Source of the DNA: Chelatococcus reniformis
Lineage (GTDB): Bacteria; Pseudomonadota; Alphaproteobacteria; Rhizobiales; Beijerinckiaceae
Reading direction: 5' to 3'
Length of the DNA stretch: 64,000 nucleotides
Assembly (NCBI RefSeq): GCF_014640075.1
Contig: NZ_BMGG01000007.1
Location: 124,001-188,000 of the forward strand
Below the pieces are notes generated by a model that saw only the letters and a list, made by a program, of their open reading frames with translations, searched no databases and had not been told where the DNA came from. Shown one piece after another: positions 13,522-34,185 of the stretch. Both the position numbers and the translations under genes were made by a program. Every line of letters starts with the position of its first letter. Position 1 is the first letter of the stretch.

Positions 13522-14337
13522 ATGGCCACGACACCCCTCGAACGGCTGCTTCCGAACGCCCCGCCGGGACACCGCTGGGCGCGGGTCGAGACGGGCGAAT
13601 CCACAGACCAGGTTTTTCGGCGCAGCGACGGGTCGGCCTATGCCAAGCTGTCGGACCGCCGTGGTGCGGCGCGCCTCGAGGATGAGCGGCGCCGGACGGA
13701 ATGGCTCGCCGGCATGGGTCTTGGGTCGCCGGCGGTGATCGACTGGCTTCATTGCGAGCTTGGCGCGTGCCTCGTCACGGCCGCCGTGCCCGGCGTGTCG
13801 GCCGCTGAACTCTCCGGCGCCGCGCTGAGCGCCGCGTGGCCATCGATCTGCCGCCAGCTCAAGTCGTTGCACGATGTGCCGGTCGCGGACTGCCCTTTCG
13901 AGCGGACCCTTGCCACCATGTTCGGGCGGGCCGTCGACGTGGTGGCGCGGGCCGCCGTCAATGCGGACTTTCTGCTCCCGGCCGACAAGGGCACGCCGCC
14001 CGCTATCCTGCTGGCGAACGTGAAGGCCGACCTGCCGGCGCGGCTGGCGCAGGAGCCCGGCGACCTCGTCGTCTGTCACGGCGACGCCTGCCTGCCAAAC
14101 CTTCTGGTCGATCCCGAGACGCTGCGCTGTACGGGGATGATCGATCTTGGCCGGTTGGGCCTGGCGGACCGCTACGCCGATCTTGCCCTGCTCCTCGCCA
14201 ATGCGAGCGAAAGCTGGTCTTCTCCCGCCGACGCCCAACTCGCTCGGGCGCGCTTGTTCGACATCCACCAGATCTCGACGCCGGACAACGACCGGCTGGA
14301 TTTCTATCTTCGACTGGACCCGCTGACCTGGGGATGA
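13522..14337 (+). CDS. StrA-like aminoglycoside 3''-O-phosphotransferase, APH(3'') family
   Basis: This 271-residue kinase-fold protein has the catalytic motif VCHGDACLPN with His186, Asp188 and Asn193, and the magnesium-binding IDLGRLGLADRYADLAL with Asp208. The pattern across the whole protein follows the streptomycin 3''-phosphotransferase StrA/APH(3'')-Ib, as I recall that sequence. Examples are ACLVTAAVPGVSAAELSGA, FERTLATMFGRAVDVVARAA and the ending RLDFYLRLDPLTWG. It is clearly a divergent member, not the mobile gene itself. No strB, transposon or integron feature is nearby and its composition matches the neighbours, so it looks chromosomal. Phosphorylation of streptomycin is expected from the family but untested. 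Confidence 0.85.
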   Translation: MATTPLERLLPNAPPGHRWARVETGESTDQVFRRSDGSAYAKLSDRRGAARLEDERRRTEWLAGMGLGSPAVIDWLHCELGACLVTAAVPGVSAAELSGAALSAAWPSICRQLKSLHDVPVADCPFERTLATMFGRAVDVVARAAVNADFLLPADKGTPPAILLANVKADLPARLAQEPGDLVVCHGDACLPNLLVDPETLRCTGMIDLGRLGLADRYADLALLLANASESWSSPADAQLARARLFDIHQISTPDNDRLDFYLRLDPLTWG

Positions 14338-21522: not shown

Positions 21523-22788
21523 CTATGCGCCGCGCTGGGCGCGGATCTGTTTCAGGACCGGCAACAGATATTCGACGAAGACGTCCGGGTTCTCCGACAT
21601 GGGGAAGTGACCGATGTCGTTCATCGCGGTCCAGGTCGATCCGGGGATCGCCGCGTGGGCAGCCTGGCCATGCTCCATCGTGCCGCTGGCATCGTATTCG
21701 CCCGACAGGATGTGGACCGGGACCTTCGATGTATCGATGCGGCCCGCCGCCTGGCGCAGATCGTAATCGACCAGATAATAGTAGAGGTCGCCGAGAAAAG
21801 CTGGCGGCCATCCGGCGGCGTAGACCTGGCTCGTCTCCTTGCGATAGGCCTCCGGCGAGGTCGGGCTCATCAAGGCGTTCATCAGTCGCGCTTTGTATTC
21901 GTTGCTCACCTGGGGATGCCAGAGCGCGTCGAGCTCGTTGATGTCGGTCTCGATCTTGAGTGCGCCCTCCAGCGAGATCACCGCGCCGAACGTCTCGGCA
22001 TGGTGGCGGGCGAGGTCCAGGGCGAGGAGGCCGCCTACCGAGCAGCCCATGAACACCGGGCGGTCGAGGGCCAGCGCGCCCGCGAGCGCGACGGGCAGGG
22101 CGCGCGCAAAGCTCGCGGTCAGGCGGTACTCGTTCGCCCACCACTTCGGCCCCACCGGCGGCAGCGACTTGCCGTGGAAGGGCATGTCGTAGGCGATCAG
22201 CCGGAAGTGGTCGGTGATCGCCTTGCACTCGAACAGGTGGCGCCACTGGGAGCCATGGCAGCCCGCGGTGTGCTGCAGGAGCAGCGGAATGCCGGCACCT
22301 GCCTCCTCGAAATAGACGCGGTAGCTCTGGCTCTCGACGTCCAGATGAATGTAGCGGCCGACTGGGCTGTCGAACGTGCCGGTCCGGACGGCGGCGGGGG
22401 CCGCGGCGGCTGCCGCCAGGGCCGGTCGCAGCAGCTCGATCGCCCGCATGACGGCGGGGTAGTATTGGGCGAACTGGACCGGATCGGCTTCGAGCGTCAT
22501 CTCGCCGAGGGCCATGATGCCGAAGATGTCGTTGTAGAAGCGCGGCGGCGTGCCGGCGATCAGCTTCTCCCACACCGGCTCCGCCGCCGCCAGCGTGATC
22601 ACCCCGGGCGCGTCCTTAGCTGGCTCGCCTGGCCCGATCCGGCCCGCGGTCACCGTCAGGCCTGCCGTGCGCCCGGGCGCCTCCAGCCGCAGCCCGCCCG
22701 TCCAGTGGCGCGCGGCCAGGGCGAATTCGCCGTCGTCGCCGCAGACGGACGACAGCGCCGCGGACGTGAGATTGTCGATTGATGGCAT
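21523..22788 (-). CDS. SCP2-like domain fused to an alpha/beta hydrolase
   Basis: This 421-residue protein starts at the ATG at 22788, preceded by AGGGAGGA. Residues 1 to about 125 resemble the SCP2 sterol-carrier fold (LTVTAGRIGPG, VITLAAAEPVWEKLIAGTPP), a lipid-binding module. Residues of about 150-421 form an alpha/beta hydrolase: LLLQHTAGCHGSQWRHLFE for the oxyanion region, FMGCSVGGLLALDLARHH as nucleophile elbow, SGEYDASGTMEHG as acid region and DIGHFPMSENP as probable His region. The two-domain arrangement suggests hydrolysis of an ester held by the SCP2 part. Neighbours are a GMC oxidoreductase and an aldehyde dehydrogenase on the same strand. Confidence 0.8.
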   Translation of the reverse strand: MPSIDNLTSAALSSVCGDDGEFALAARHWTGGLRLEAPGRTAGLTVTAGRIGPGEPAKDAPGVITLAAAEPVWEKLIAGTPPRFYNDIFGIMALGEMTLEADPVQFAQYYPAVMRAIELLRPALAAAAAAPAAVRTGTFDSPVGRYIHLDVESQSYRVYFEEAGAGIPLLLQHTAGCHGSQWRHLFECKAITDHFRLIAYDMPFHGKSLPPVGPKWWANEYRLTASFARALPVALAGALALDRPVFMGCSVGGLLALDLARHHAETFGAVISLEGALKIETDINELDALWHPQVSNEYKARLMNALMSPTSPEAYRKETSQVYAAGWPPAFLGDLYYYLVDYDLRQAAGRIDTSKVPVHILSGEYDASGTMEHGQAAHAAIPGSTWTAMNDIGHFPMSENPDVFVEYLLPVLKQIRAQRGA

Positions 22789-22910
22789 TGCGTCCTCCCT
22801 CTGCTTGCGCTGCGGGCGCCGGCGATGCGGTTGCGTCTCGCGCATTGTCCCGCTCACGCCCGGCGGCAGCCGACGTCGGCATGACGTCAAATCGATCTGC
22901 TGTTATGCAA

Positions 22911-22960: not shown

Positions 22961-24397
22961 TTACAGTTTGATCGTGATGCATTTGAGCTGCGTGTAGTGA
23001 TGCAGCGCCTCGATGCCCTTCTCACGGCCGTAGCCGCTGTTCTTGTAGCCGCCGAGCGGCGTCTCGACCCCGCCGGCCTGATACTCGTTGACGTAGATCT
23101 GGCCGGCCTCGACGGCAGCCGCCACCCGGTGGACGCGCGACACGTCGCGCGTCCAGATGCCGGCGGCCAGGCCGTAGCTCGTATCGTTGGCGATGCGGAT
23201 CGCTTCGGCCTCGTCTGCGAAGGGGATGACCACGAGCACCGGCCCGAAGATCTCCTCGCGGGCGATGCGCATGTCGTTGCGCACGCCGACATAGATGGTC
23301 GGCGGCACGAACCAGCCCTCACGCCAGGCCTCGTCCGGCGCGAGCTCACCGCCCACGATCGCCCGCGCGCCCTCCTGCCGGGCGACGTCGAAGTAGCTCC
23401 GGACGCGCCGGTACTGCGCCTCGGTGGTGAGGGGCCCGACCGTGGCGTCGGCCGCGGGCCCCACCCGCAGCGCGCCGACCGCCTGAGTGAGGCCGGCCAC
23501 GACCTGATCATGGATCGACGCTTGCACCAGCAGGCGGCTGCCGGCCAGGCAGACCTGGCCGGCGTTGGCGGTGAAGGCACGCACCGCACCGGGAATGGCC
23601 TGCGTCAGGTCGGCGTCGTCGAAGATGATGTTCGGCGACTTGCCGCCCAGCTCCAGCGTCAGCGGAATGATCCGCTCCGCCGCGATGCGACCGATCTCGC
23701 GGCCGGCGCGGACGCTGCCGGTGAAGGCCACCTTGCGGACCAGCGGCTGCGAGACGAGGGCCGCGCCGGCGACGTCCCCTGCGCCGAGCACGACATTGAG
23801 CACGCCCGGCGGCAGGCCGCAGGCCTCGCACGCCATCTGCGCCAGGGCCACGGTGGTGCCGGAGGTGAACTCCGAGGGCTTGGCCACCACCGTGTTGCCG
23901 GCTGCGAGCGCCGGCGCGATGGCGCGCGCCGCCTGGTTCAGCGGCGCGTTCCAGGGGGTGATGACGCCGACGACGCCGTAGGGCTCGCGCACCGTGTAGG
24001 AGTGGTAGCCGGCGCCGAGATTGATCGTCTCGCCTTGAAAGACGTTCGTTAGGCCGCCGTAGAACTCGAAGTATTGCGCCGCGATCTCGATCTCGAAGGG
24101 CGCCTGCCATTGTGGCTTGCCCGTCTCCAGGCGTTCGAGGTCCGCGAGCTCGGCCGCCTTGTCGCGGATGGCGCGCGCGATGGCGAGCAGGATGCGGCCG
24201 CGCTCGATCGGTCGCCGGCTGCGCCAGGCCGGCGCGGCCGTAGCCGCCGCCGCGACCGCGCGCTCGACGTCGCCCGCATTTCCCGAAGCAACGCGAGCGG
24301 CGGCCTGACCTGCGCACGGATCAAACGAGCGTAGATATTCGCCGGACGACGGCGCTTGGCTGTGTCCATCAATGTAATGGTGCCACTGATCCGCCAT
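22961..24397 (-). CDS. Aldehyde dehydrogenase (NAD(P)-dependent)
   Basis: This 478-residue enzyme oxidises an aldehyde to its acid. The start MADQWHHYIDG at 24397 is preceded by AGGAGGA at good spacing, so more upstream in-frame codons were rejected. Catalytic Cys283 lies in NAGQVCLAGSR and the general base Glu249 in LTLELGGKSPNIIF. The cofactor region GVITPWNAPLNQ has Asn150, and the C-terminal EIFGPVLVVIPF is canonical. It is similar in type to phenylacetaldehyde/betaine-aldehyde dehydrogenases, but the substrate cannot be assigned. It is divergent from the phosphotransferase at 24750, sharing a 352-bp promoter region. Confidence 0.92.
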   Translation of the reverse strand: MADQWHHYIDGHSQAPSSGEYLRSFDPCAGQAAARVASGNAGDVERAVAAAATAAPAWRSRRPIERGRILLAIARAIRDKAAELADLERLETGKPQWQAPFEIEIAAQYFEFYGGLTNVFQGETINLGAGYHSYTVREPYGVVGVITPWNAPLNQAARAIAPALAAGNTVVAKPSEFTSGTTVALAQMACEACGLPPGVLNVVLGAGDVAGAALVSQPLVRKVAFTGSVRAGREIGRIAAERIIPLTLELGGKSPNIIFDDADLTQAIPGAVRAFTANAGQVCLAGSRLLVQASIHDQVVAGLTQAVGALRVGPAADATVGPLTTEAQYRRVRSYFDVARQEGARAIVGGELAPDEAWREGWFVPPTIYVGVRNDMRIAREEIFGPVLVVIPFADEAEAIRIANDTSYGLAAGIWTRDVSRVHRVAAAVEAGQIYVNEYQAGGVETPLGGYKNSGYGREKGIEALHHYTQLKCITIKL

Positions 24398-24749
24398 GCG
24401 GGCCCGTTCCTCCTGCATTCTGCTTGGCATGATCTAAGCCGAGCCGGCGACCGGGCGGAAGTCGTCGTGGCGACAAATCATATATGTGATGGCGTGACTC
24501 GCCGACGGCACAGGAGGCCGCGGCGTGCAGCGAGCCGGTGCTATGCCGCGCGCGGCCGTCCCCCAGTCCGTCCGGCGCCCCGGCGATGGCGGACTGTCAC
24601 GGCGAATGGCCGCGCCCGGCCGGACGCCACCGCCCGTTCGGCACGGGCTCTTCTCCGCCGCGCAGATCCCTTCGAGAGGATGGACGCCGTTCTTTGACAA
24701 CGCGGCGTAACACTGTTATTTCGATGGGTGATCAGGAGAATGCAGCCCC
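24398..24749. promoter_or_regulatory. Divergent promoter region between aldehyde dehydrogenase and phosphotransferase
   Basis: This 352-bp gap holds no supported gene. It contains the first of four TAAC-N3-GTTA operator copies at 24708-24718. Closer to the dehydrogenase it holds an imperfect palindrome ATCATATATGTGAT at 24477-24490. Confidence 0.55.
24708..24718. promoter_or_regulatory. Operator copy 1 of the TAAC-N3-GTTA regulon
   Basis: TAACACTGTTA lies 31 bp before the GTG start of the phosphotransferase gene, in a promoter-proximal position. The half-site TAACA is symmetric. The same motif occurs at 27606, 29060 and 33062. Confidence 0.65.
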
Positions 24750-25802
24750 GTGACAGCCGACGAACTCGCCCCCCGCCTGCTGACCTGGGCCCGGTCCCAC
24801 TACGGCGGCGGCGTGCATGTCGACCACGTCCGTTCCCTCGGCGGCCACTCCGGCGTCACCATCGGCTTCGATGTGCTGGAAGCGGGGCAACCGATCGACC
24901 GCCTCGTCCTCAAGATGCCCCCGGCCGGCGTCAGCCGCAAAGGCAGCTACGACGTGCTGCGGCAGGTGCCGCTGCTGCGCGTCTTGGAGGAGCATGGCGT
25001 GCCCGCGCCGGCGGTTCGCTGGTCGTCCGACGATGAGAGCCTTCTCGGTGGGCCTTATCTGATGATGTCGCGTCTCAGCGGCGCCTCGCCGCCGGATCTG
25101 TTTCGGCCCGAGGAGGCTGGTCGGGGTGTCGATCAGCCCGAGCAGCTGTTCCGCGAGGCAATCGAGGCGCTGGTCAAGATCCACGCCATCGACGCCTTGG
25201 GCGAACTCGGAGATTGGAGCGCTCCTCGGCTGCCGCCGGCGGAGATCGAGTATTGGGTGGCTGTCCTGCACAAATCGAGCAACGCCGCCTGGATCGCGCA
25301 GGGCATGGCGCTGCGCGAGCTGCTCCATCGCGCGGCGCCGGAGGCGTGCTCCATCGGGCTCGTGCATGGTGACTTCTACTCGAACAACTGGTTGTTCGAC
25401 AGCGGTCATCTGGCCGGCATAGTCGATTGGGAAGGGACCTCGGTGGGCCCGGTGCTCCTCGACCTTGGCTGGGTCTGCATGATGTACGATCCCCACGGCT
25501 GGGGACCGGTGCGGCGCGCCAGCATGCATTGGCAGCCGGGGCCCGAGCAGTTCATCGAGGTCTACGCGGGGCTGTCCAGCGCCAACCTCGGCGATCTGCC
25601 GTTCTACCGGGCTCTTGCCGCCTACCGACTGGCCTGTCTGACGGCTTACTACGTCGAGCTGCATCGCAGCGGCAAGCGCCCCAACCCGGCGTGGGACGTC
25701 TTTGCGGATTCGTTTCCCTTCATGGTCGCACGCGCCTCGGCGCTGCTGATGGACCGCATCGGCCGCGTCGGCGCGGGGCGCACTGCCGTTCCCGTCCGCT
25801 GA
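24750..25802 (+). CDS. Phosphotransferase-family protein, ACAD10/11 N-domain type
   Basis: This 350-residue APH-fold kinase-like protein starts at a GTG (MTADELAPRLLTWARSHYGG) with GGAG 11 nt upstream. The nucleotide-binding lysine region is IDRLVLKMPPAG. The catalytic loop is LVHGDFYSNNWLFD with HGD and Asn, followed by the metal-binding DWEGTSVGPVLLDLGW. This subfamily corresponds to the kinase domain of human ACAD10/11 and to LvaA-like proteins, which act on CoA thioesters of hydroxy acids. No acyl-CoA dehydrogenase adjoins it, but a crotonase does (95 bp downstream). An operator 31 bp upstream suggests control by the TetR regulator at 26959. Confidence 0.85.
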   Translation: MTADELAPRLLTWARSHYGGGVHVDHVRSLGGHSGVTIGFDVLEAGQPIDRLVLKMPPAGVSRKGSYDVLRQVPLLRVLEEHGVPAPAVRWSSDDESLLGGPYLMMSRLSGASPPDLFRPEEAGRGVDQPEQLFREAIEALVKIHAIDALGELGDWSAPRLPPAEIEYWVAVLHKSSNAAWIAQGMALRELLHRAAPEACSIGLVHGDFYSNNWLFDSGHLAGIVDWEGTSVGPVLLDLGWVCMMYDPHGWGPVRRASMHWQPGPEQFIEVYAGLSSANLGDLPFYRALAAYRLACLTAYYVELHRSGKRPNPAWDVFADSFPFMVARASALLMDRIGRVGAGRTAVPVR

Positions 25803-25896
25803 CGCGCCAATTCGAGGCAGATACGCAAGCAGCTCATCGCAGCGGCCGAATGCTGCGGCGCGGTCGCCGCATGCTCGAGGGAGGAGGCCCTCAACT

Positions 25897-26802
25897 ATGA
25901 ATTATGAAGCGATTGACTATCACGTGGACGGCGCGTCGTGCTTCATTACGCTCAACCGGCCCGACGATCTGAACACGATCGTTCCGCCCATGCTCGACGA
26001 GCTGGAGAGCGCGGTCGGCCGGGCCATCCGCGACCGGGCCGTAAAGGTCATCATCCTGCAGGGCGCCGGGCGGTCGTTCTGCGCCGGGTTCAATTTCTCG
26101 GGCGGCTTCAGCCAGTGGGACGACAAGATCGCCACGGACGGCCAATGGGATGCCGGGCGCGACCTGATGATGGTGACGTCGCAGGAGCTCGGCTGGGTGC
26201 CTCGCTTCATGTCGCTGTGGCGCAGCCCCAAGCCGGTCATTGCGCAGGTCCATGGCTGGTGCGTGGGCGGCGGCAGCGAGATGGCCCTGTGCGCCGACAT
26301 CGTCATCGCCTCCGAGGATGCGCAGATCGGCACGCCGTACGCGCGCATGTGGGGGTGCCACCACGCCGGCATGTGGGTCTACCGTCTGGGATTGGCGAAG
26401 GCCAAGGAACTGGCGCTGACCGGGCGCGCGGTGTCGGGACGGGAGGCCGAGCAGATCGGTCTCATCAACAAGGCGGTGCCGTTCGACCAGCTGGAAGCGG
26501 AGGTGCGGTCGCTGGCCGACCAGCTCGCCACCATCCCCTCCTCGCAGCTCGCGTCGATGAAGCTCGTCGTCAACCAGGCCTACGACAACATGGGGCTGGG
26601 AACGACGCAGCTGCTCGGCTCGGTGATGGACAGCATGATGCGCAACACGCCCGAGGCGCTGCAATTCATCGACAAGGCCAAGCGGGAAAGCGTGCAGGCC
26701 GCGGTGGCGGAGCGCGATCGCCCGTTCGGCGACTACAGCCAGGGCTCCAAGCCCAACCCGGCCCATGTCGTCGTGCCGCCGTCGCGGCGCGCCGCCAGAT
26801 AG
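25897..26802 (+). CDS. Enoyl-CoA hydratase/isomerase family protein (crotonase)
   Basis: This 301-residue crotonase has a strong GGAGGAGG-type ribosome site. The oxyanion-hole motif is GRSFCAGFNFSG, and the second backbone-amide region is HGWCVGGGSEMALCADIVIA. At the position of the usual catalytic Glu in the helix after CADI the text reads IGTPYARMWGCHHAGMW. The C-terminal tail (FGDYSQGSKPNPAHVVVP) is longer than in classic hydratases and resembles crotonases of unknown specificity. It follows the phosphotransferase and precedes tetR on the same strand, so it probably acts in the same CoA-ester pathway. Confidence 0.88.
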   Translation: MNYEAIDYHVDGASCFITLNRPDDLNTIVPPMLDELESAVGRAIRDRAVKVIILQGAGRSFCAGFNFSGGFSQWDDKIATDGQWDAGRDLMMVTSQELGWVPRFMSLWRSPKPVIAQVHGWCVGGGSEMALCADIVIASEDAQIGTPYARMWGCHHAGMWVYRLGLAKAKELALTGRAVSGREAEQIGLINKAVPFDQLEAEVRSLADQLATIPSSQLASMKLVVNQAYDNMGLGTTQLLGSVMDSMMRNTPEALQFIDKAKRESVQAAVAERDRPFGDYSQGSKPNPAHVVVPPSRRAAR

Positions 26803-26958
26803 GCTCCTGCCGTCCGCGCCGGAGCCCGGCCGCGCCCGGCTGGCGAAGGCGCGTTTTATGGCCTAACTATCGTCGATCGGCCCGTTGCATCAGGCCGTCG
26901 GTCGCTTGCCGGCCCGCGGGCTCCCAACGGGCCAGCATCGACGAGCGAGGTCATGCCC

Positions 26959-27588
26959 ATGGACACTGGGGTTCCGTTTGCAGGCGACGGCGCTTCCCGC
27001 CAGTTGCGACGGGAGGCCGTGCTGGCGGCGGCGCGAAAGGTGTTCGAGATGAGAGGCCTCGATGGAGCCTCGATCAGGCTCATCGCCAAGGAGGCCGGCT
27101 GCACCACAGGTTCCATCTATCCCTACTTCAAGGGCAAGGAGGAGATCTACGCCGAGGTGCTGTCGCTGTCGCTCGACGACTACAAGGCGCGCCTCGTGGC
27201 CGATGTCGACGCCGCAAAGACCCCGGAAGCGCGCTTCGAGGCGGCGCTGTGGTCGCACTTCAGGTTCTACGAGACGCGGCCGAGCGACATGTCGCTCGCC
27301 CTGTACCTGTTCAATGGCTTGAAGCCGCAAGGCTTGACGAGGGAGCTCGATGCTCGGCTCAACGAGCAGCTGATCTCGATCTTGACCATCTTCAAGGATT
27401 GCCTGCGCTCCATGGTGAATTGCAGCGCGCGGGATGCGGAGATCGAAGTGGGCCTCCATTTCTCGATGCTCTTCGGCCTGCTGACCCTGCTGCACACGAA
27501 GCGGACTCGCGTCTTCAAGATCGATCCGCGCGCCCTATTGAAGCTGCACATCCGCCGCTCCGTCGAACGTCTGACGGCCGGCTCTTGA
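26959..27588 (+). CDS. TetR-family transcriptional regulator, probable regulator of the TAAC-N3-GTTA regulon
   Basis: This 209-residue protein starts at 26959, where GAGG is 8 nt upstream; an ATG 6 nt earlier is too close to that site. The N-terminal helix-turn-helix includes AARKVFEMRGLDGASIRLIA and KEAGCTTGSIYPYFKGKEEI, canonical for TetR proteins. The C-terminal ligand domain is helical (HFRFYETRPSDMSLALYLFN). It lies inside the gene group flanked by the four operator copies, and one copy lies 18 bp after its stop codon. An acyl-CoA ligand is plausible given the neighbours but is inferred. Confidence 0.9.
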   Translation: MDTGVPFAGDGASRQLRREAVLAAARKVFEMRGLDGASIRLIAKEAGCTTGSIYPYFKGKEEIYAEVLSLSLDDYKARLVADVDAAKTPEARFEAALWSHFRFYETRPSDMSLALYLFNGLKPQGLTRELDARLNEQLISILTIFKDCLRSMVNCSARDAEIEVGLHFSMLFGLLTLLHTKRTRVFKIDPRALLKLHIRRSVERLTAGS

Positions 27589-27605
27589 CAATGGATATTC
27601 AGTTA

Positions 27606-27616
27606 TAACAGTGTTA
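27606..27616. promoter_or_regulatory. Operator copy 2 of the TAAC-N3-GTTA regulon
   Basis: TAACAGTGTTA is a perfect odd-length palindrome between the tetR stop and the lipocalin-like gene, 67 bp before the latter's ATG. It would allow separate control of the downstream gene. Confidence 0.65.
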
Positions 27617-27683
27617 CGGACGGTAAAGAAACGTTCTGCAGGACGACGGCGCTGATCCTGGGCTGCCGCGTCCCCCGCCCGGA

Positions 27684-28811
27684 ATGGAGACGGCTGTGAG
27701 GCTGACGGCATACGACGAATTCCCGTTCCACCAGCATCCGACGCCGTTCCACATCCCGGCTACTTCAGACGTTCACTTCAACGACGGCTACTTCTGCGCC
27801 GCCTTCGCCGACGATTGGTACGTCGTGGCGGGCGTGCGCCTGCACCCGAACATGAACGTGATCGACGGCTTTGCCGGCATCGCGCGCCGGGGCGAGCAGC
27901 GCGTGCTGCGCGCGTCCCGTGTGCTGCGGCCGAACGCGGCCGAGCTGGCCGTGGGACCCTTGCGCATCGACATCAGGGAGCCGATGCGCAAGGTGACGAT
28001 CTCGCTGGCCGACAACGAGGCGGATTTCGCTTTCGATCTGACCTTCGAGGCCAAGGCGTCGCCGTTCCTCGAGGCGCCCTATCAGTTCCGCAAATACGGC
28101 CACCTCATTCACGATCTCGTTCGCTACACACAGATCTGCAGCGCGACGGGCACCGTCCGCCGCGGCGACGAGACCGTCGCGCCCCAGCAGTGGCACGCAA
28201 TCCGCGATCACTCCTGGGGCGTGCGCGCGGGCATGGGGCCGGTGACCTCCCATGGCGGCATCGAGCGGGAGGAGGAGGAGATCGACCGCCGGCGCTTCCG
28301 CGTCTGGGCCCCGTTCTCGCTCGACCGCTACACCGGTTTCTTCAATACGCATGAGGATGAGGACGGCAGGCCGCTCGACTTCGAGGGCTGCCTCGACATG
28401 CCGGACGGCAGCCGCCTCAGGCTCACCGGACTGCGCCACAAGCTCGACTATGCGCCGGGGACCAAGAACGTGGTGGGCGGCACATTCGAGCTCTGCGACG
28501 AACACGGCCGCTGGCGCGCCTATCGCATCGAGGCGGCCGGCACCCCGGCGGATGTCCAGGGCCTCGGCTATTACGGCGGCTGGCGCGACGGCGGCAGCGC
28601 CGGCGTCTATCGCGGCGCCGGGCCCGTCGTCGAGACGGACCGCTACCCATCGGCGGCGCACCTGGGCAAGACGGGGCTGCTGTCGTTGCCCGAGTCGAAG
28701 CGGCTGGGCCCCACCGAGTTTCCTTGTGTCATGACCGGCCCGGATGGCGAGACCGGCATGGTGCACTTCGAGCAGCACGTATTTGGTGCCTACAGGCCAT
28801 ACGGCTTCTGA
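27684..28811 (+). CDS. Protein with tandem lipocalin-like domains (AttH/CrtC-like, DUF7064/7065 type)
   Basis: This 375-residue protein has no signal peptide and no transmembrane segment. The text has two beta-rich halves. The first includes DVHFNDGYFCAAFADDWYVV and the joint HAIRDHSWGVRAG near residues 172-184. The latter HxxRDHSWG-like block is the hallmark of the AttH/CrtC (hydroxyneurosporene-synthase-like) lipocalin group. The second half includes RYTGFFNTHEDED-like strands. The function of this family in catabolic clusters is unknown. A GTG at 27696 with GGAG upstream is an alternative start. It is preceded by operator copy 2, so it probably belongs to the regulon. Confidence 0.7.
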   Translation: METAVRLTAYDEFPFHQHPTPFHIPATSDVHFNDGYFCAAFADDWYVVAGVRLHPNMNVIDGFAGIARRGEQRVLRASRVLRPNAAELAVGPLRIDIREPMRKVTISLADNEADFAFDLTFEAKASPFLEAPYQFRKYGHLIHDLVRYTQICSATGTVRRGDETVAPQQWHAIRDHSWGVRAGMGPVTSHGGIEREEEEIDRRRFRVWAPFSLDRYTGFFNTHEDEDGRPLDFEGCLDMPDGSRLRLTGLRHKLDYAPGTKNVVGGTFELCDEHGRWRAYRIEAAGTPADVQGLGYYGGWRDGGSAGVYRGAGPVVETDRYPSAAHLGKTGLLSLPESKRLGPTEFPCVMTGPDGETGMVHFEQHVFGAYRPYGF

Positions 28812-29114
28812 CGTACCGGACGCCGCCGGCGCCTACCGTGGGCCTTTCCTGCTCGCACGTGATCGCCCGATCCGGTTGCGAGACGTCGGAGCATTGTGCG
28901 AACCACCGGTCGGGCCCGGCGCAATTGATCCCATCGCTCCAAGTCTGGATCGCTCTTCTCCGACCGGGAAACGCCGCGGGCCGCTGGCCGGGCGCGCATG
29001 GAGCAACTTGCTGCGTTGCGGCGAGCGTTCGATGGTTTTGCGCGATAAGGCTATGTACATAACATCGTTATTGTTGCACAATCGACCTCTCAAATAATAT
29101 CACGGGAGGTTCGC
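28812..29114. promoter_or_regulatory. Intergenic region before the orphan binding protein, with operator copy 3
   Basis: This 303-bp gap has no supported gene. Its last 90 bases are A+T-rich and carry the third operator copy followed by a strong ribosome site (CGGGAGG). This is the promoter region of the binding-protein gene at 29115. Confidence 0.6.
29060..29070. promoter_or_regulatory. Operator copy 3 of the TAAC-N3-GTTA regulon
   Basis: TAACATCGTTA, within ATAACATCGTTATT, lies 44 bp before the ATG of the orphan LIV-type binding protein. It shares the TAAC...GTTA halves with the copies at 24708, 27606 and 33062. Confidence 0.65.
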
Positions 29115-30323
29115 ATGCGACTGCTTGCCACGATGGCCGCAGCCTGTGTCGTCTGGAGTTCCTGCGTCGTGGCGCAGGGCTCAGACGGCGTCTTCAAGAT
29201 CGGGGTCATCAACGATCAGAGCGGCGTCTATTCCTATGTGACCGGGCGCGGCAGCGTCGAAGCCACGCGTCTCGCCGTCGAAGACGCGGGTGGCAAGGTC
29301 CTGGGCAAGCGCATCGAAGTCCTCGTCGGCGACGACCAGAACAAGCCCGACATTGCCGCGGCGATCGTGCGCAAATGGATGGATGTCGACGGCGTCAACG
29401 TCATCCTGGCGGGCGGCGGCAGCGCGACGACCGTGGCCGCCATCACCGTCGCCAAGGAAAAGAACAAGACGATCCTCGTCGCCGGTGCGGGATCATCGGA
29501 CATCACGGGCAAATTGTGTGCGCCCAACGTGACGCACTGGGTGTTCGATACCTACGGGCTTGCCGCCAGCGTGGGCAAGGCAGTCGTCGCACAGGGCGGC
29601 AAGTCCTGGTTCTTCGTGACGGCCGACTATTCCTTCGGTCTGGCGCTCGAGCGAGACACGGCCCGCTTCATCCAAGCGGGCGGCGGCAAGCTGCTGGGCG
29701 ACGCCAAGCATCCCCTGAACTCGCCGGATTTCGCCTCCTACCTGCTCCAGGCGAAGGCGTCGGGCGCCCAGGTCGTCGGCTTCGCCAACGCCGGCGGCGA
29801 CATGGTGAACTCGATCAAGCAGGCCCGCGAATTCGGCATCGGGCAGGGCGGACAGCGGCTGGTCGGCCTCCTGCTCTACGTCAATGACATCCAGGCCCTC
29901 GGCTTGCCGACCGCTGACGGTATCCTCGGAGTAGCGTCCTTCTACCACGACCTGAACGATGCGACCCGTGCCTGGACCAAGCGCTATATGGAGCGCTTCC
30001 CGGGCGGCAACATTCCGAACATGACCCACGCGGGTGCCTATGCGGCGATCAATCATTACCTCAAGGCCGTCACGACGGCAGGGTCCGACGATGCGGCGAT
30101 CGTCGGCAAGACGATGCGCCAGATGCCGGTCAACGACTTCTACGACAAGGATGTCCGCATCCGCGCGGACGGGCGCGTGCTGCAGAACATGATGCTGTGG
30201 CAGGCGAAGTCACCGCAGGAGTCGAAAGGCCCCTACGATCTGCTCACCATTCGCCAGACGCTGCCCGGCGCGGACGTCTACCGGCCCGAGAGCGAGGGTG
30301 CCTGTCCGCTGGTCGCGAACTGA
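29115..30323 (+). CDS. Orphan LIV-type ABC transporter substrate-binding protein
   Basis: This 402-residue protein is predicted periplasmic. The signal peptide MRLLATMAAACVVWSSCVVA is likely cut after VVAQ. The mature part has FKIGVINDQSGVYSYVTGRG and the LIV-receptor pattern AVEDAGGKVLGKRIEVLVGD. It closely resembles the receptor at 40818-42047 (INDQSG/LNDQSG, QGGKSWFF in both, SVKQANEFGI against SIKQAREFGI). No transporter membrane gene is adjacent. Operator copy 3 is 44 bp upstream, so uptake or sensing of the pathway substrate is its probable role. A terminator-like hairpin follows the stop codon. Confidence 0.88.
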   Translation: MRLLATMAAACVVWSSCVVAQGSDGVFKIGVINDQSGVYSYVTGRGSVEATRLAVEDAGGKVLGKRIEVLVGDDQNKPDIAAAIVRKWMDVDGVNVILAGGGSATTVAAITVAKEKNKTILVAGAGSSDITGKLCAPNVTHWVFDTYGLAASVGKAVVAQGGKSWFFVTADYSFGLALERDTARFIQAGGGKLLGDAKHPLNSPDFASYLLQAKASGAQVVGFANAGGDMVNSIKQAREFGIGQGGQRLVGLLLYVNDIQALGLPTADGILGVASFYHDLNDATRAWTKRYMERFPGGNIPNMTHAGAYAAINHYLKAVTTAGSDDAAIVGKTMRQMPVNDFYDKDVRIRADGRVLQNMMLWQAKSPQESKGPYDLLTIRQTLPGADVYRPESEGACPLVAN

Positions 30324-30331
30324 GGGGTAGC

Positions 30332-30363
30332 GCGGCGCGGGGCAGCGATCTGCCCCGCGCCGC
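30332..30363 (+). terminator. Perfect 14-bp hairpin after the binding-protein gene
   Basis: GCGGCGCGGGGCAG-CGAT-CTGCCCCGCGCCGC is a perfect 14-bp stem with a 4-base loop, starting 9 bp after the stop codon. There is no T-tract, so it may protect the 3' end of the transcript or act as a terminator for convergent transcripts. Confidence 0.7.
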
Positions 30364-30464
30364 CGCGGATCGCGGATGGCAGCGCCGGCTTCGGATCCCG
30401 CCCAAGCGGCACCGCTACGGCGGACGGCAGCGCGTGCACGCCGAGAGCGGTGCCGCTCGCCGCC

Positions 30465-32093
30465 TCAGCTCGCTCGGCCGGGTACATGGGCGCCGCCAAA
30501 GCGTTCGCGCAGCACGAACTTCTGCGGCTTGCCGCTCGATGTACGCGGCATGGCGTCGACGAAATGGACGATGGCCGGTTTCTTGAAGCCGGCTAGATGA
30601 TCCGCGCAGAAGGCGATGAGCTCGACCGCCGTGACCTGTCGGTCGACCAGCGCCTCGACCACGGCGCACACCTGCTCGCCCCATTTCTCATGCGGGACGC
30701 CGATGACAGAGACGTCGGCGACGCCGGGGTGCCGCCGCAGGACGTCCTCGATCTCGGAGGGATAGATGTTCATGCCGCCGCTGATGATCATGTCCTTCTT
30801 GCGCCCGGTGACGAACAGATAGCCGTCGTCGTCGAGATGGCCGACGTCGCCGGTGCGCAGCCAGTCGCCCCCCAGGACCTCGCGCGTCAACTCGGGTTCG
30901 TCCCAATAGCCGGCGCTCATCGACGGGGCGCGGACCCAGATCTCGCCGTCGCTGCCGGAGGGCAGGTCGCCGCCGAGGTCGTCGACGATGCGGATCGCGA
31001 CGTGCAGCGAGGGGCGTCCGGCCGAGGCCGGCTTGCGCGACGACATATGGGGCGGCATGCACGTCACGCTGCCGCCGCCCTCCGTGAGGCCGTAGACCTG
31101 AATGAAGGCGCTTTGCGGAAAGCGTGCCTGCATGGCGTCGACGGTGCTGGCCGACAGCGGCTGGCCGCCGCACATGATCATGCGGAGCGCGCTGGAATCG
31201 AAGGGCGCCATGTCGTCGATGCGGAGGATCTCGTAGACCATCGTCGGCACCCACAGGACATGGCTGATGGCGTGGTCGCAGACGTAGCGCACCGCAGCCT
31301 CCGCATCGAAGCCGCTGGACTCCTTGATATGGACCGTGCCGCCGGCGTGCAGCACCGGCCAAGTGAAGTCGTGGCGGCCACCGATGTAGTGCAGGTCGAT
31401 CATCGCATAGGTCGAGCTCTCCGGCCCTATGCGATAGTCGACCACCTGCTGGAGTGAGTTGAACAGCAGTCCGCCGTTGGTCCACACCACGCCCTTCGGC
31501 CGGCCGGTCGTGCCCGACGTGAAGATGATCTCGTGAGGATCGTCGAAGCGTGGTTCCCGCGGAACGGGCCCGTCGGAGGCGGTGATCAGGTTTGCGTAGC
31601 CGACGTCGCCGACCACGTCGTCGAGATCGACGATGACCTCGAGGTCGGGAAGGGCACCCTGCTGGCGCAGTTCCACCACCGCTGCCGCCGTCTTGGCCTC
31701 GACGAAGATGGCGCGGGCGCCCGAGCGCTTCAGGATGGTGCCGATCTCGGGCGGCCTGAGCCGCCAGTTGATCGGCACCATGATGGCGCAGGTGGCGGCG
31801 ATCCCGGCCTCGATCTCCAGATATTCGAGCCGGTTGGTCGACAGTACGGCGACGCGATCGGCGGGCTCGATGCCGAGCCGGATCAGGCCATTGCCGACGC
31901 GCCGCATTTGGCGGCGCATGTCACGGTAGGTCCGCCGGCTCCCCTTGAAGACGACGGCGGGCGCGTTCGGCTCATGGCCGCCGCGCTCGAACAGGTCGGG
32001 CAGCGCCAGGCTGCGCCAGCGTGGCGCCTCATCCAGGTCGAGCTTGATCTTGCTCGCCCGTGACGGCTCGGACATCGCCTCGATGGGTGCCAC
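30465..32093 (-). CDS. Acyl-CoA synthetase (AMP-forming, ANL superfamily)
   Basis: This 542-residue enzyme activates a carboxylic acid to its CoA thioester with ATP. The GTG at 32093 (MAPIEAMSEPSRASK) follows AAGGAGG; longer frames upstream overlap the neighbouring crotonase and were discarded. The P-loop motif is IIFTSGTTGRPKGVVW, the adenylate motif region is IQVYGLTEGGG, and the hinge region WLRTGDVGHLDDDGYLFVTG precedes GRKKDMIISGGMNIYPSEIE. The C-terminal catalytic Lys lies in RTSSGKPQKFVLR. It is followed on this strand by nothing close and preceded by a crotonase (158-bp gap). The substrate is unknown; an aliphatic or aryl acid fits the pathway. Confidence 0.93.
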   Translation of the reverse strand: MAPIEAMSEPSRASKIKLDLDEAPRWRSLALPDLFERGGHEPNAPAVVFKGSRRTYRDMRRQMRRVGNGLIRLGIEPADRVAVLSTNRLEYLEIEAGIAATCAIMVPINWRLRPPEIGTILKRSGARAIFVEAKTAAAVVELRQQGALPDLEVIVDLDDVVGDVGYANLITASDGPVPREPRFDDPHEIIFTSGTTGRPKGVVWTNGGLLFNSLQQVVDYRIGPESSTYAMIDLHYIGGRHDFTWPVLHAGGTVHIKESSGFDAEAAVRYVCDHAISHVLWVPTMVYEILRIDDMAPFDSSALRMIMCGGQPLSASTVDAMQARFPQSAFIQVYGLTEGGGSVTCMPPHMSSRKPASAGRPSLHVAIRIVDDLGGDLPSGSDGEIWVRAPSMSAGYWDEPELTREVLGGDWLRTGDVGHLDDDGYLFVTGRKKDMIISGGMNIYPSEIEDVLRRHPGVADVSVIGVPHEKWGEQVCAVVEALVDRQVTAVELIAFCADHLAGFKKPAIVHFVDAMPRTSSGKPQKFVLRERFGGAHVPGRAS

Positions 32094-32251
32094 TGCCGCC
32101 TCCTTTCCGTCCCGGCGCATCGCGGTGGGCGGGATCACCCGGTTATCGCGAGGCGTTCCAGATCGACGAGCTTGGAGCGGTCCCGCGCGTGGATGAACAC
32201 ATCCCGCGGGGCAACGCTCCGGCGAAGGGCCCCGCGGCCGGGGCGATGGCT

Positions 32252-33040
32252 TCAGCTTTGGCGGTTTGCCGCGCCCGGGCGCGGCGGCGCCGGGCGGCTG
32301 CCGTCGGCGAAGCGCCGCATGCCGGCCATGGCCTCCTCGCTCAGTGCCGGGGAGTGGCAGAGCTCCGCCTCCAGATCGAGCCCCTGCTCGAGCGACAGGC
32401 CGATGGTCGCCAGCGCCGCTTGCCGGTCGGCGCGAATGCCGCCCTGCGAGTAGTCGGCGATATGCTGCGCGAGCTGCAACGACCGCTCCAGCGCCGTGCC
32501 GGCAGGCACGACCTCCTGGGCGAGACCCATGCGCAAAGCATGCTGCGCGTCGATCTCCATGCCCGTCTCGATCATGTAGAGTGCATTGCCGATGCCGACG
32601 ACGCGGGGCAGGCGCTGGGTGCCGCCGTCCGCCAGCGACAACCCCCAACGCTTGTTGAGCAGACCGAACTTGGCCCGCTCGTCGACGATCCGGAAATCGC
32701 ACCACACCGCCAGCTCGACGCCGCCCGCGTAGCAATTGCCGTTGATGGCGGCGATCACCGGCTTGCCGGGGTCGAGCCGGGCGAAGCCCATGGGCCCCGC
32801 CGTGTGGGTGTGACGGTGCTCGAAGAGCTCGCGCATGCCCTTGAGGTTGGCACCGGCGCAGAACGTCTTGTCGCCGGCCCCCGTGATCACCAGCACGTTG
32901 GACGCCTCGTCCGCGCCGAAGGCGATGATGGCATCGGCCAGCTCCATGGCCAGCTCGTCGTCCACGTTGTTGTGAACCTCTACCCGGTTCAACGTGAACA
33001 GCGTGACGTTTCCTCGGCGCTCGATCAGCAGCTTAGGCAT
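32252..33040 (-). CDS. Enoyl-CoA hydratase/isomerase family protein (crotonase)
   Basis: This 262-residue crotonase starts at the ATG at 33040 (MPKLLIERRGNVTLF), with AGAGGA upstream. Oxyanion-hole motifs are DKTFCAGANLKGM and NGNCYAGGVELAVWCDFRI. The length is normal. Operator copy 4 lies 22 bp upstream of the start, so it is probably repressed by the TetR protein at 26959. It is followed by the acyl-CoA synthetase and is divergent from the nitronate monooxygenase-like gene. Confidence 0.88.
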   Translation of the reverse strand: MPKLLIERRGNVTLFTLNRVEVHNNVDDELAMELADAIIAFGADEASNVLVITGAGDKTFCAGANLKGMRELFEHRHTHTAGPMGFARLDPGKPVIAAINGNCYAGGVELAVWCDFRIVDERAKFGLLNKRWGLSLADGGTQRLPRVVGIGNALYMIETGMEIDAQHALRMGLAQEVVPAGTALERSLQLAQHIADYSQGGIRADRQAALATIGLSLEQGLDLEAELCHSPALSEEAMAGMRRFADGSRPAPPRPGAANRQS

Positions 33041-33061
33041 TGCGCTGTCCTCTTGTGTTAA

Positions 33062-33072
33062 TAACACCGTTA
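33062..33072. promoter_or_regulatory. Operator copy 4 of the TAAC-N3-GTTA regulon
   Basis: TAACACCGTTA, inside the wider palindrome AATAACACCGTTATT, sits 22 bp upstream of the crotonase ATG and within the divergent promoter shared with the nitronate monooxygenase-like gene. Confidence 0.65.
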
Positions 33073-33237: not shown

Positions 33238-34185
33238 ATGTTCGAAGGCAATCGCGTCGTGGCGCATACGCGCGCCCGCTATCCGATCTTCCAGTCACCG
33301 ATGACCTGGATCGCCCGGGCACCGCTGGTGTCGGCCGTGTCGGCCGCGGGGGCGTTCGGCCTGCTCGAGAGCACCTCCCGCGACCTCGCCATGACGACGC
33401 GCGAGTTCAATGCCATCCGCGCCGCCACCAACCAGCCCTTCGGCGTCAACCTGCCGGTGCGCTACCTCAAGGATGATCCCAAGGAGGAGAAGGCGATCAT
33501 CGACTGGCTGCTCGCCCAGAACATCCACTTCGTCACCACGTCGGCGGGCGATCCCGGCCGCTACGTGCGCACGCTGAAGGACGCGGGCGTCACCGTCTAC
33601 CACGCCACCGCCACCCTCTACGGGGCGCAGAAGGCCGTCGACGTCGGCGTCGACGGCCTGATCGTCGAGGGAGCGGAGAGCGCGGGCGTCCGCAATCCCG
33701 ACGAGGTGCACAGCTTCGCTTTGCTGCAAGCGGTGCGCGAGAAGACGACGGTGCCGCTCGTCGCCGCCGGCGGCATCGTCGACGGCCGCGGCATGGCCGC
33801 AGCCTTCGCGCTCGGGGCCGAGGGCGTCACCATGGGCACGCGCTTCGTTGCGTCCACCGAGAGCCCGGTGCACCTCAACTACAAGAACGCCATCGTGGCG
33901 GCGCCGATTACCGGCACGCTCATGCTCGACAATCCGCCCCGCGCCCGGGCGCGGGGCCTGCGCACCCCCTACGCGGAGGGCGTGAGCGGGGGCGAACGCG
34001 AGCCTCTGCCCCCCATGGCCATCCTCGAAAAGCTCTATGTGGGCGGCGACGTCGACAACACCTCCGGGGCGGCCGGCGAGAGCGCCGGCCTGATCCACGA
34101 GATCAAGTCGGTCCGCGACATCGTCGAGGACACCGTGGCCGGCTTCTGGCGCGAGATTGACCGGTTGGCGGCGCTGCGCCGCTGA
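33238..34185 (+). CDS. Nitronate monooxygenase/2-nitropropane dioxygenase-like FMN protein
   Basis: This 315-residue TIM-barrel flavoprotein starts at the ATG at 33238, with GGTGGA upstream. It begins ARYPIFQSPMTWIARAPL, the typical first strand of the NMO family. FMN-phosphate motifs are VPLVAAGGIVDGRGMAAAFA and LGAEGVTMGTRFVA. The family oxidises nitronates, but many members in catabolic clusters have other, often unknown, FMN-dependent roles. It is divergent from the crotonase and shares the operator-bearing promoter region. It is slightly shorter than the 330-380 residues of typical NMOs. Confidence 0.85.
   Translation: MFEGNRVVAHTRARYPIFQSPMTWIARAPLVSAVSAAGAFGLLESTSRDLAMTTREFNAIRAATNQPFGVNLPVRYLKDDPKEEKAIIDWLLAQNIHFVTTSAGDPGRYVRTLKDAGVTVYHATATLYGAQKAVDVGVDGLIVEGAESAGVRNPDEVHSFALLQAVREKTTVPLVAAGGIVDGRGMAAAFALGAEGVTMGTRFVASTESPVHLNYKNAIVAAPITGTLMLDNPPRARARGLRTPYAEGVSGGEREPLPPMAILEKLYVGGDVDNTSGAAGESAGLIHEIKSVRDIVEDTVAGFWREIDRLAALRR

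What the first reader, a model, noticed from the sequence alone, without database searches (positions are those of the whole stretch)
24708..33072. Four copies of TAAC-N3-GTTA define a compact TetR regulon for an unknown acid
Sites at 24708, 27606, 29060 and 33062 are TAACACTGTTA, TAACAGTGTTA, TAACATCGTTA and TAACACCGTTA. Each is in front of a transcription unit: phosphotransferase-crotonase-tetR, lipocalin-like gene, orphan receptor, and divergent crotonase-synthetase/nitronate monooxygenase. The TetR gene lies inside the region. Together these genes look like a complete import and CoA-activation pathway not matching one I know.
Basis: partly seen in the sequence, partly recalled or inferred. 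Interest (0 to 1): 0.7.

Follow-up and report, generated by a model that had tools for sequence, protein, structure and literature searches.

The report
TetR regulon around an alcohol-removing kinase/lyase pair
Four near-identical DNA sites, one of them in front of the operon that carries the gene of the protein that probably binds them, seem to control a small set of genes that use ATP to strip a stubborn hydroxyl group from an unknown compound so that it can be degraded.

Summary
The four TAAC-N3-GTTA sites are exact and are four of only five in the 6.81-Mb genome. The motif recurs beside homologues of this TetR: 53 of 110 loci, against at most 6 of 110 for 15 control palindromes. It tracks the TetR recognition helix (18 of 21 loci with this helix type, 5 of 31 without). 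In Vineibacter terrae it precedes the orthologous kinase gene. A TetR regulon is very likely.

The pathway reading changes. The "lipocalin-like" gene belongs to NF053593, whose only solved relatives are named 25-phosphosteroid lyase; an Asp that is Asn in one deposited form is invariant here. The "phosphotransferase" is an APH-fold kinase. Such kinases adjoin NF053593 genes in 20 of 25 loci examined in the class.

Best explanation: a TetR-repressed, ATP-dependent alcohol dehydration module (phosphorylate, then eliminate phosphate), with crotonases, a CoA ligase and an uptake receptor attached. Substrate unknown; a hydroxylated acid, terpenoid or steroid side chain is most likely. TetR binding and both activities are inferred, not measured.

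The parts
24708..24718 (.). Operator 1, TAACACTGTTA, between a TTGACA -35-like box and a TATTTC -10-like box, 31 bp before the kinase start; also in the gap to the divergent aldehyde dehydrogenase gene (start 24430)
   Evidence: Exact match; promoter-like context (not reported by the stricter scan)
24750..25802 (+). APH-fold small-molecule kinase (PF01636), GTG start, with HGD...N and DWE motifs
   Evidence: Pfam 108.9 bits; PDB relatives 9o56, 3dxp, 3ats, 9fsg and the ACAD11 entries; alignment A6
25897..26802 (+). Crotonase 1, NF009125 (PRK12478) family
   Evidence: 460.6 bits, cut-off 347; 84% identical in Vineibacter
26953..27588 (+). TetR-family regulator with recognition helix CTTGSIY; presumed repressor of all four sites, its own operon included
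   Evidence: PF00440; no NCBIfam cut-off reached; motif/helix correlation
27606..27616 (.). Operator 2, TAACAGTGTTA, 67 bp before the lyase-family gene
27684..28811 (+). Rv3169-family (NF053593) protein, presumed phospho-alcohol lyase; relative of 25-phosphosteroid lyase; D175 aligns with the Asp that is Asn in PDB 9g4c
   Evidence: 258.1 bits, cut-off 150; PDB 9fzn E 1.4e-28 over residues 6-182; family profile E 8.9e-89 over profile positions 1-346 of 350; D175 invariant in 26 of 26 aligned
29060..29070 (.). Operator 3, TAACATCGTTA, within a perfect ATAACATCGTTAT
29115..30323 (+). Periplasmic receptor of the branched-chain amino acid transporter type (PF13458), without a permease gene beside it
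   Evidence: 334.4 bits; neighbours
30465..32120 (-). AMP-forming acyl-CoA synthetase (start ATG 32120 or ATG 32075)
   Evidence: PF00501 267.7 bits (run from 32090, which is not a start codon); below all 25 NCBIfam cut-offs shown
32134..32146 (-). Candidate degenerate site ATAACCGGGTGAT, 13 bp before ATG 32120 of the synthetase; unproven
   Evidence: One mismatch to ATAACNNNGTTAT, read; such matches are not enriched genome-wide
32252..33040 (-). Crotonase 2 (enoyl-CoA hydratase/isomerase family)
   Evidence: PF00378 157 bits
33062..33072 (.). Operator 4, TAACACCGTTA, within a perfect ATAACACCGTTAT; 21 bp before crotonase 2 and 165 bp before the divergent gene
33238..34185 (+). Nitronate-monooxygenase family flavoprotein (NMO/FabK-like), possible target of operator 4
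   Evidence: PF03060 160.9 bits; TIGR03151 213.1 bits, cut-off 453.1, not met
22961..24430 (-). Aldehyde dehydrogenase, divergent from the kinase operon, followed by an alpha/beta hydrolase (21523-22890) and a GMC oxidoreductase (19766-21406); possible associated genes without a site of their own
   Evidence: shares only the intergenic region that holds operator 1

Best explanation
A TetR-family repressor (26953-27588) binds ATAAC-N3-GTTAT operators that overlap or adjoin four promoters and shuts off its own operon and three other units until an inducer, probably a pathway intermediate or its CoA ester, is present. The core of the regulon is a two-enzyme, ATP-dependent dehydration: the APH-fold kinase phosphorylates a hard-to-remove (probably tertiary or gamma) hydroxyl, and the NF053593-family lyase eliminates the phosphate to leave a C=C bond. 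Around it, the receptor helps uptake, the acyl-CoA synthetase makes the CoA ester, and two crotonases hydrate, isomerise or cleave the products; the kinase/lyase step would stand in for an acyl-CoA dehydrogenase. Shown by sequence: the sites, their rarity, their recurrence next to homologous tetR genes, family membership of kinase and lyase, and kinase-lyase gene pairing. Inferred: TetR binding, repression, the promoters, the two catalytic activities, their order and the substrate.
For: Sites: 4 of 5 genomic copies lie here. Palindrome count upstream of 52 dereplicated tetR homologues: TAAC-N3-GTTA in 23, the same half-site at ten other spacings mean 0.1, max 1; the inner register AACA-N-TGTT in 29. 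Over all 110 loci 53, against at most 6 for any of 15 control half-sites. Motif tracks the recognition helix, 18 of 21 against 5 of 31, Fisher p 6.8e-7. In Vineibacter terrae the kinase gene (60% identical) has TAACAGTGTTA ending 69 bp before its ATG, one of three exact sites in that 8.8-Mb genome, and crotonase 1 (84%), TetR (63%) and lyase (77%) lie contiguous on another contig. Lyase: NF053593 cut-off passed; its only PDB relatives are named 25-phosphosteroid lyase; D175 invariant in 26 of 26 aligned and equal to the D that is N in 9g4c. Kinase adjacency: 20 of 25 NF053593 loci fetched from 24 other genomes of the class have an APH open frame on the same strand, 19 overlapping or within 25 bp and one at 367 bp; by genus 13 of 17 (genus labels). 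The same kinase profile finds none in 1.43 Mb of tetR loci. Pfam confirms APH in the 10 partner kinases tested, 8 of those 20 plus the two of this genome. Both other NF053593 genes of this genome have an APH gene at 452 and 2881 bp. Literature: ATP-dependent dehydration by kinase plus lyase in sterol degradation (PMC8449060, PMC11061730, passages); a TetR represses the pair Rv3168-Rv3169 (PMC5340868, passages).
Against: No binding or enzyme data. The lyase is a divergent member: 258 bits against 356 and 353 for the two paralogues, and 20-31% identical to the 24 aligned relatives other than Vineibacter, so substrate or even reaction could differ. The single-sequence match to 25-phosphosteroid lyase covers only residues 6-182. 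The kinase's best PDB relative is 9o56, not 9fsg. 29 of 52 dereplicated upstream regions, and 57 of 110 in all, lack the exact motif; so do four family loci L002-L005 left out of the 110. The helix grouping was made after seeing the helices, the scan itself selected for such helices, and Fisher's test treats related loci as independent. The kinase-pairing loci include several from one genus, and the control loci come from other genomes than the paired loci. The wider regulon is not conserved in Vineibacter: the best synthetase there is 36% and receptors are ten paralogues of 41-52%, and its three exact sites lie by the kinase, by a second crotonase-tetR pair and in an unexplained place. The stricter promoter scan reports no sigma-70-like promoter at the sites; the looser score does.
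Confidence: 0.75

Rival explanations
1. The regulon degrades a 4-hydroxy (gamma-hydroxy) fatty acid in the way of the LvaA/LvaC or ACAD10/ACAD11 route: CoA ligation first, then kinase on the 4-hydroxyacyl-CoA, then phosphate elimination, here with the NF053593 protein in place of the acyl-CoA-dehydrogenase-type eliminase.
For: The kinase matches the ACAD11 entries in their first ~320 residues (E 1.2e-5 alone; 8.2e-43 with the family profile). A CoA ligase and two crotonases are in the regulon. PMC11342911 passages describe kinase, then elimination to an enoyl-CoA.
Against: No acyl-CoA dehydrogenase domain among the 30 window proteins scanned. The lyase family's solved relatives are named for a steroid phosphoester.
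Confidence: 0.3
2. The regulon serves a steroid or terpenoid side chain with a tertiary alcohol, as in anaerobic sterol degradation.
For: 25-phosphosteroid lyase is the only solved relative; partner kinases of some NF053593 genes also score as ecdysteroid kinase-like (3 of 10 tested).
Against: No ring-degradation or sterol hydroxylase gene was recognised among the 30 window proteins scanned; the synthetase is far below the steroid-24-oyl-CoA cut-off (273.9 against 750 bits); the kinase is not closest to 9fsg.
Confidence: 0.3
3. The TetR regulon is real but the NF053593 protein is not a lyase here: it is a ligand-binding barrel protein, and the kinase acts on a different small molecule.
For: The window protein is divergent and the structure prediction was too poor to test the fold (mean pLDDT 36).
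Against: D175 and its RDxSWGxR surroundings are kept; kinase and lyase-family genes are paired in 20 of 25 loci.
Confidence: 0.15
4. The four sites belong to another regulator and the TetR gene sits among them by chance.
For: No binding data; the fifth genomic site (C1:613755) has no relative of this TetR in the 20 kb inspected.
Against: The same palindrome stands next to homologous tetR genes in many genera and tracks the recognition helix.
Confidence: 0.05

Closest known systems
25-hydroxysteroid kinase / 25-phosphosteroid lyase of Sterolibacterium denitrificans (PMC8449060, PMC11061730, passages read; PDB 9fzn, 9g2i, 9g4c seen by name and alignment only)
   Same: A phosphotransferase-type kinase plus an NF053593-like lyase; ATP-dependent removal of an alcohol; conserved Asp
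   Different: Here both genes are in one TetR regulon with a CoA ligase, receptor and crotonases; the 2021 paper reports no lyase candidate near the kinase gene. The window pair is divergent and no steroid gene was recognised among those scanned. That the PDB lyase comes from this organism is my assumption.
Rv3167c-Rv3168-Rv3169 of Mycobacterium tuberculosis (PMC5340868, passages read)
   Same: A TetR repressor next to an operon of Rv3168 (an APH-fold protein, PDB 3ats; recalled) and Rv3169, the protein that names NF053593
   Different: No chemistry, receptor or CoA ligase in the passages read; operator not compared here
LvaA/LvaC levulinate route and ACAD10/ACAD11 (PMC11342911, passages read)
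   Same: A related kinase phosphorylates a hydroxyl that is then eliminated as phosphate to feed beta-oxidation
   Different: Their eliminase is an acyl-CoA dehydrogenase family protein; none was found among the window proteins scanned
TetR regulators of lipid and sterol degradation (KstR, KstR2, PsrA, FadR)
   Same: TetR fold and control of crotonase and CoA-ligase genes (recalled); nearest PDB sequences include a fatty acid metabolism regulator (3whb) and KstR2
   Different: The NCBIfam cut-offs are missed by a wide margin (KstR 19.6 of 280 bits, FadR 50.8 of 200, PsrA 20 of 300)

Membership tests
TetR family regulator | TetR_N helix-turn-helix domain over the curated cut-off | tested here: met
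   PF00440 53.1 bits, cut-off 24
TetR family regulator | Palindromic candidate operator at its own operon | tested here: met
   Operator 1 heads the kinase-crotonase-tetR unit; in Vineibacter the same motif heads the kinase gene
TetR family regulator | Binding of the operator and release by a ligand | not testable with these tools
   Needs purified protein
NF053593 (Rv3169 family, includes 25-phosphosteroid lyase) | Family score over cut-off | tested here: met
   258.1 bits, cut-off 150
NF053593 (Rv3169 family, includes 25-phosphosteroid lyase) | Conserved Asp that is Asn in PDB 9g4c | tested here: met
   D175, invariant in 26 of 26 aligned
NF053593 (Rv3169 family, includes 25-phosphosteroid lyase) | Same fold as 9fzn | tested here: inconclusive
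   Model of the window protein too poor (mean pLDDT 36.2); no fold search made
25-phosphosteroid lyase proper | Elimination of phosphate from a 25-phosphosteroid | not testable with these tools
   Only family-level similarity is shown
APH-fold small-molecule kinase | PF01636 domain with HGD...N and DWE motifs | tested here: met
   108.9 bits; G207, D208, N213, D226, W227 invariant or nearly so in 17 aligned
25-hydroxysteroid kinase orthologue | Closest to the solved 25-hydroxysteroid kinase | tested here: inconclusive
   9fsg E 3.7e-8, but 9o56 E 5.2e-19 is closer; that 9fsg is the steroid kinase is my inference from its name and neighbouring entry codes
LvaA/LvaC-type 4-hydroxyacyl-CoA route | Acyl-CoA dehydrogenase family eliminase with the kinase | tested here: not met
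   No such domain among the 30 window proteins scanned; not every window ORF was scanned
KstR / PsrA / FadR regulators | NCBIfam equivalog cut-off | tested here: not met

The most novel reading that the evidence does not exclude
NF053593 proteins are general phospho-alcohol lyases that, paired with APH-fold kinases, form a widespread and overlooked bacterial module for ATP-dependent dehydration of unreactive alcohols; this cassette is a new branch with its own TetR switch (ATAAC-N3-GTTAT), which feeds the alkene to crotonases in place of an acyl-CoA dehydrogenase step and acts on a non-steroid hydroxy acid or terpenoid.
Probability: 0.45. Interest if true: 0.72.

Novelty: new variant of a known kind. 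Interest (0 to 1): 0.55.

Why it matters
The operator and its link to the recognition helix give a regulatory signature with which to find further cassettes, their inducers and hence their substrates. The homologous mycobacterial pair has a known TetR repressor, but the passages I read give it no chemistry.

Tried and rejected
Close TetR orthologues within the family: 5 of 149 genomes had a match, one of them the window's own. The four others (L002-L005) are 41-42% identical, no other regulon gene was recognised beside them, and none has the exact motif in the 3.0-3.6 kb held.

The fifth genomic site (C1:613755) lies about 9 kb from an NF053593 paralogue, with an IclR-family gene on one side and a small NapE-like frame on the other (named from recall). 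I treat it as unrelated. The third Vineibacter site (C35:6815) was fetched but no regulon gene was recognised there, and I went no further.

PA3973 of Pseudomonas (PMC9736018, passages): different motif. Literature for the motif: TAACNNNGTTA 0 papers; TetR with TAACA, TGTTA and enoyl-CoA hydratase 16 papers, 12 seen in the listing, none opened; the one there on TetR control of catabolism concerns KstR and KstR2. 'Phosphosteroid lyase' 2 papers; Rv3169 14 papers, 8 seen in the listing. These cover one open library only.

Structure prediction of the lyase with two sequences gave mean pLDDT 36.2, so no fold search was made.

The strict promoter scan found nothing at the sites; a looser score of my own puts all four at 8 to 9 of 12, against 1.2% of random window positions at 8 or more, but those positions are more G+C-rich, so this is weak.

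One search read three of its four homologue rows on the wrong strand and was replaced. In one search, 22 of the 25 fetched class loci were aligned (left out: L145, close to L144; L158, incomplete; the second gene of G771). One search used open frames read stop to stop, so small overlaps between lyase and kinase frames are not gene overlaps; L183 starts 49 bp from its contig end, so its missing kinase may be a contig break.


Full report
Observation. The four sites exist exactly as described and are the only exact TAAC-N3-GTTA in the window (0.03 expected). The whole genome, 6.81 Mb in 39 contigs, holds five, four of them here. Two of the four extend to a perfect ATAACNNNGTTAT and two miss one outer base. 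Degenerate versions are not enriched (300 against 410 for the reversed control), so the candidate weak site before the synthetase (32134-32146) is only noted.

Genes. Operator 1 heads an APH-fold kinase, a crotonase (NF009125) and the TetR gene; operator 2 heads an NF053593 gene; operator 3 a branched-chain-type periplasmic receptor; operator 4 lies between a crotonase-synthetase pair and an NMO-family flavoprotein. The sites end 21 to 67 bp before the start codons (165 bp for the NMO gene). At operator 1 a TTGACA box and a TATTTC box flank the site with a 17-bp spacer, a usual place for a repressor site; the stricter scan does not report it.

Does this TetR own the motif? I counted 110 loci with a TetR homologue: the 80 kept of 312 confirmed in one scan of the species collection, and 30 from order and class searches (11 of 397 and 20 of 385 genomes had a match at the thresholds used, the window's own genome counted in each). 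Four loci of the family search (L002-L005) were not in the count; none has the motif. In the 1.2 kb upstream and first 60 bases of tetR, TAAC-N3-GTTA occurs in 53 of 110 loci (11 of 30 and 42 of 80), against 0 to 6 for the other eleven orderings of the same bases and four further half-sites. After removing near-identical regions 52 remain and 23 have it. In a count of all 4-base half-site palindromes with spacers 0 to 10, the 15 commonest are this motif (23, mean 0.1 at other spacings), its inner register AACA-N-TGTT (29, mean 1.2) and thirteen G+C-rich palindromes that are common at many spacings. Where a crotonase gene like crotonase 1 directly precedes tetR in the loci, 11 of 13 have the motif just before the crotonase gene, 930-1016 bp before tetR. 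Of 27 Achromobacter and Bordetella loci, 26 have it 38-118 bp before the matched start of tetR.

Recognition helix. Homologues with a helix of the type G-C/M/V-T/S-T-G, like the window's, have the motif in 18 of 21 cases, the others in 5 of 31. I set this grouping after seeing the helices, and related loci are not independent. Of the three misses, L028 has three sites on the other side of tetR and L045 is Vineibacter, next paragraph; L023 has none.

Nearest relative. In Vineibacter terrae an 8.3-kb contig holds crotonase 1 (84% identical), TetR (63%) and the NF053593 gene (77%) in that order. A second contig ends 127 bp after the kinase gene (60%), which has TAACAGTGTTA ending 69 bp before its ATG and a one-mismatch copy directly before the ATG. 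It is one of three exact sites in that 8.8-Mb genome. The contigs were not joined. Another of the three precedes a second crotonase-tetR pair (43% each), with a synthetase homologue 0.8 kb away on the other side; the third is unexplained. The best relatives of the window synthetase there are 36% and the receptor has ten paralogues of 41-52%. So the conserved core is kinase, crotonase 1, TetR and lyase; the other units look like additions in this genome. No close lyase orthologue was found in 397 sampled genomes of the order (the four other genomes with a match are 28-34% identical).

What the core does. The NF053593 protein's only PDB relatives are three entries named 25-phosphosteroid lyase, and a profile of 26 family members matches them over positions 1-346 of 350 (E 8.9e-89). 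One of these, 9g4c, carries N where the others carry D in RDRSWGVRP; that D is D175 here and is invariant in 26 of 26 aligned sequences. Reading 9g4c as an inactivated variant is my inference. In 289 genomes of the class the family matches in 33, over its cut-off in 25, the window's genome counted. I fetched all 25 over-cut-off places outside the window's genome, from 24 genomes: 20 have an APH frame on the same strand, 19 of these overlapping or within 25 bp and one at 367 bp; 5 have none. By the genus labels this is 13 of 17 genera. The same kinase profile found no hit in 1.43 Mb of tetR loci from other genomes. Ten partner kinases were checked with Pfam, 8 of the 20 and the two of this genome; all ten pass PF01636. 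Both other NF053593 genes of this genome have an APH gene near, one on the opposite strand 2.9 kb away.

Mechanism from known chemistry. In anaerobic sterol degradation a kinase phosphorylates the tertiary C25 alcohol and a separate lyase eliminates phosphate (PMC8449060, PMC11061730, passages read); in those papers the lyase gene was unknown or putative. In levulinate and 4-hydroxy fatty acid breakdown a kinase acts on a hydroxyacyl-CoA and an acyl-CoA dehydrogenase family protein eliminates the phosphate (PMC11342911, passages). The window regulon has the kinase and the NF053593 lyase, a CoA ligase and crotonases, and no acyl-CoA dehydrogenase among the 30 proteins scanned. I therefore propose that the kinase/lyase pair makes the double bond that an acyl-CoA dehydrogenase would make elsewhere, on a substrate whose hydroxyl blocks ordinary beta-oxidation. 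Substrate, order of steps and inducer are open.

Comparison and novelty. A TetR repressor of the Rv3168-Rv3169 pair is known (PMC5340868, passages; that Rv3168 has the APH fold is recalled), so the theme is not new; the operator, the additional genes and the reading as a dehydration module are, as far as my searches go. I found no paper on this motif or on NF053593 genes as lyases in the searches made, which cover one open library and whose listed papers were mostly not opened; the PDB names show that others have worked on the steroid enzyme.

Verdict. The finding is real and the regulon claim is strong (about 0.9 by my judgement); the chemistry is well supported at family level (about 0.75); the substrate is unknown.

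Noticed in passing
window 13522-14337 (+): An APH(3'')-type aminoglycoside phosphotransferase gene (NF032896, 342.5 bits, cut-off 325) outside the regulon.
   Followed up: no
L014 (own genome C6:364500-384400): A second NF053593 gene in a cluster with an APH kinase, acyl-CoA synthetases, a receptor like the window's 18283-19494 gene and ABC transporter genes, with no TAAC-N3-GTTA site.
   Followed up: partly
L013 (own genome C1:598000-617900): A third NF053593 gene 452 bp after an APH kinase frame; the fifth genomic TAAC-N3-GTTA lies about 9 kb away in another gene context.
   Followed up: partly
L054 and other Achromobacter and Bordetella loci: TetR homologues with the same motif upstream (26 of 27 loci) but with none of the window's core genes recognised in the DNA held: the same TetR subfamily seems to control other genes in betaproteobacteria.
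   Followed up: no
L136:7169-10930: A second crotonase-tetR pair in Vineibacter with its own TAACGACGTTA site before the crotonase gene and a synthetase homologue on the other side.
   Followed up: partly
L182, L184, L188: Kinase partners of NF053593 genes that score as ecdysteroid kinase-like (PF02958) as well as APH.
   Followed up: no
L016 and L017: TetR homologue matches reported with one in-frame TGA inside the matched stretch.
   Followed up: no
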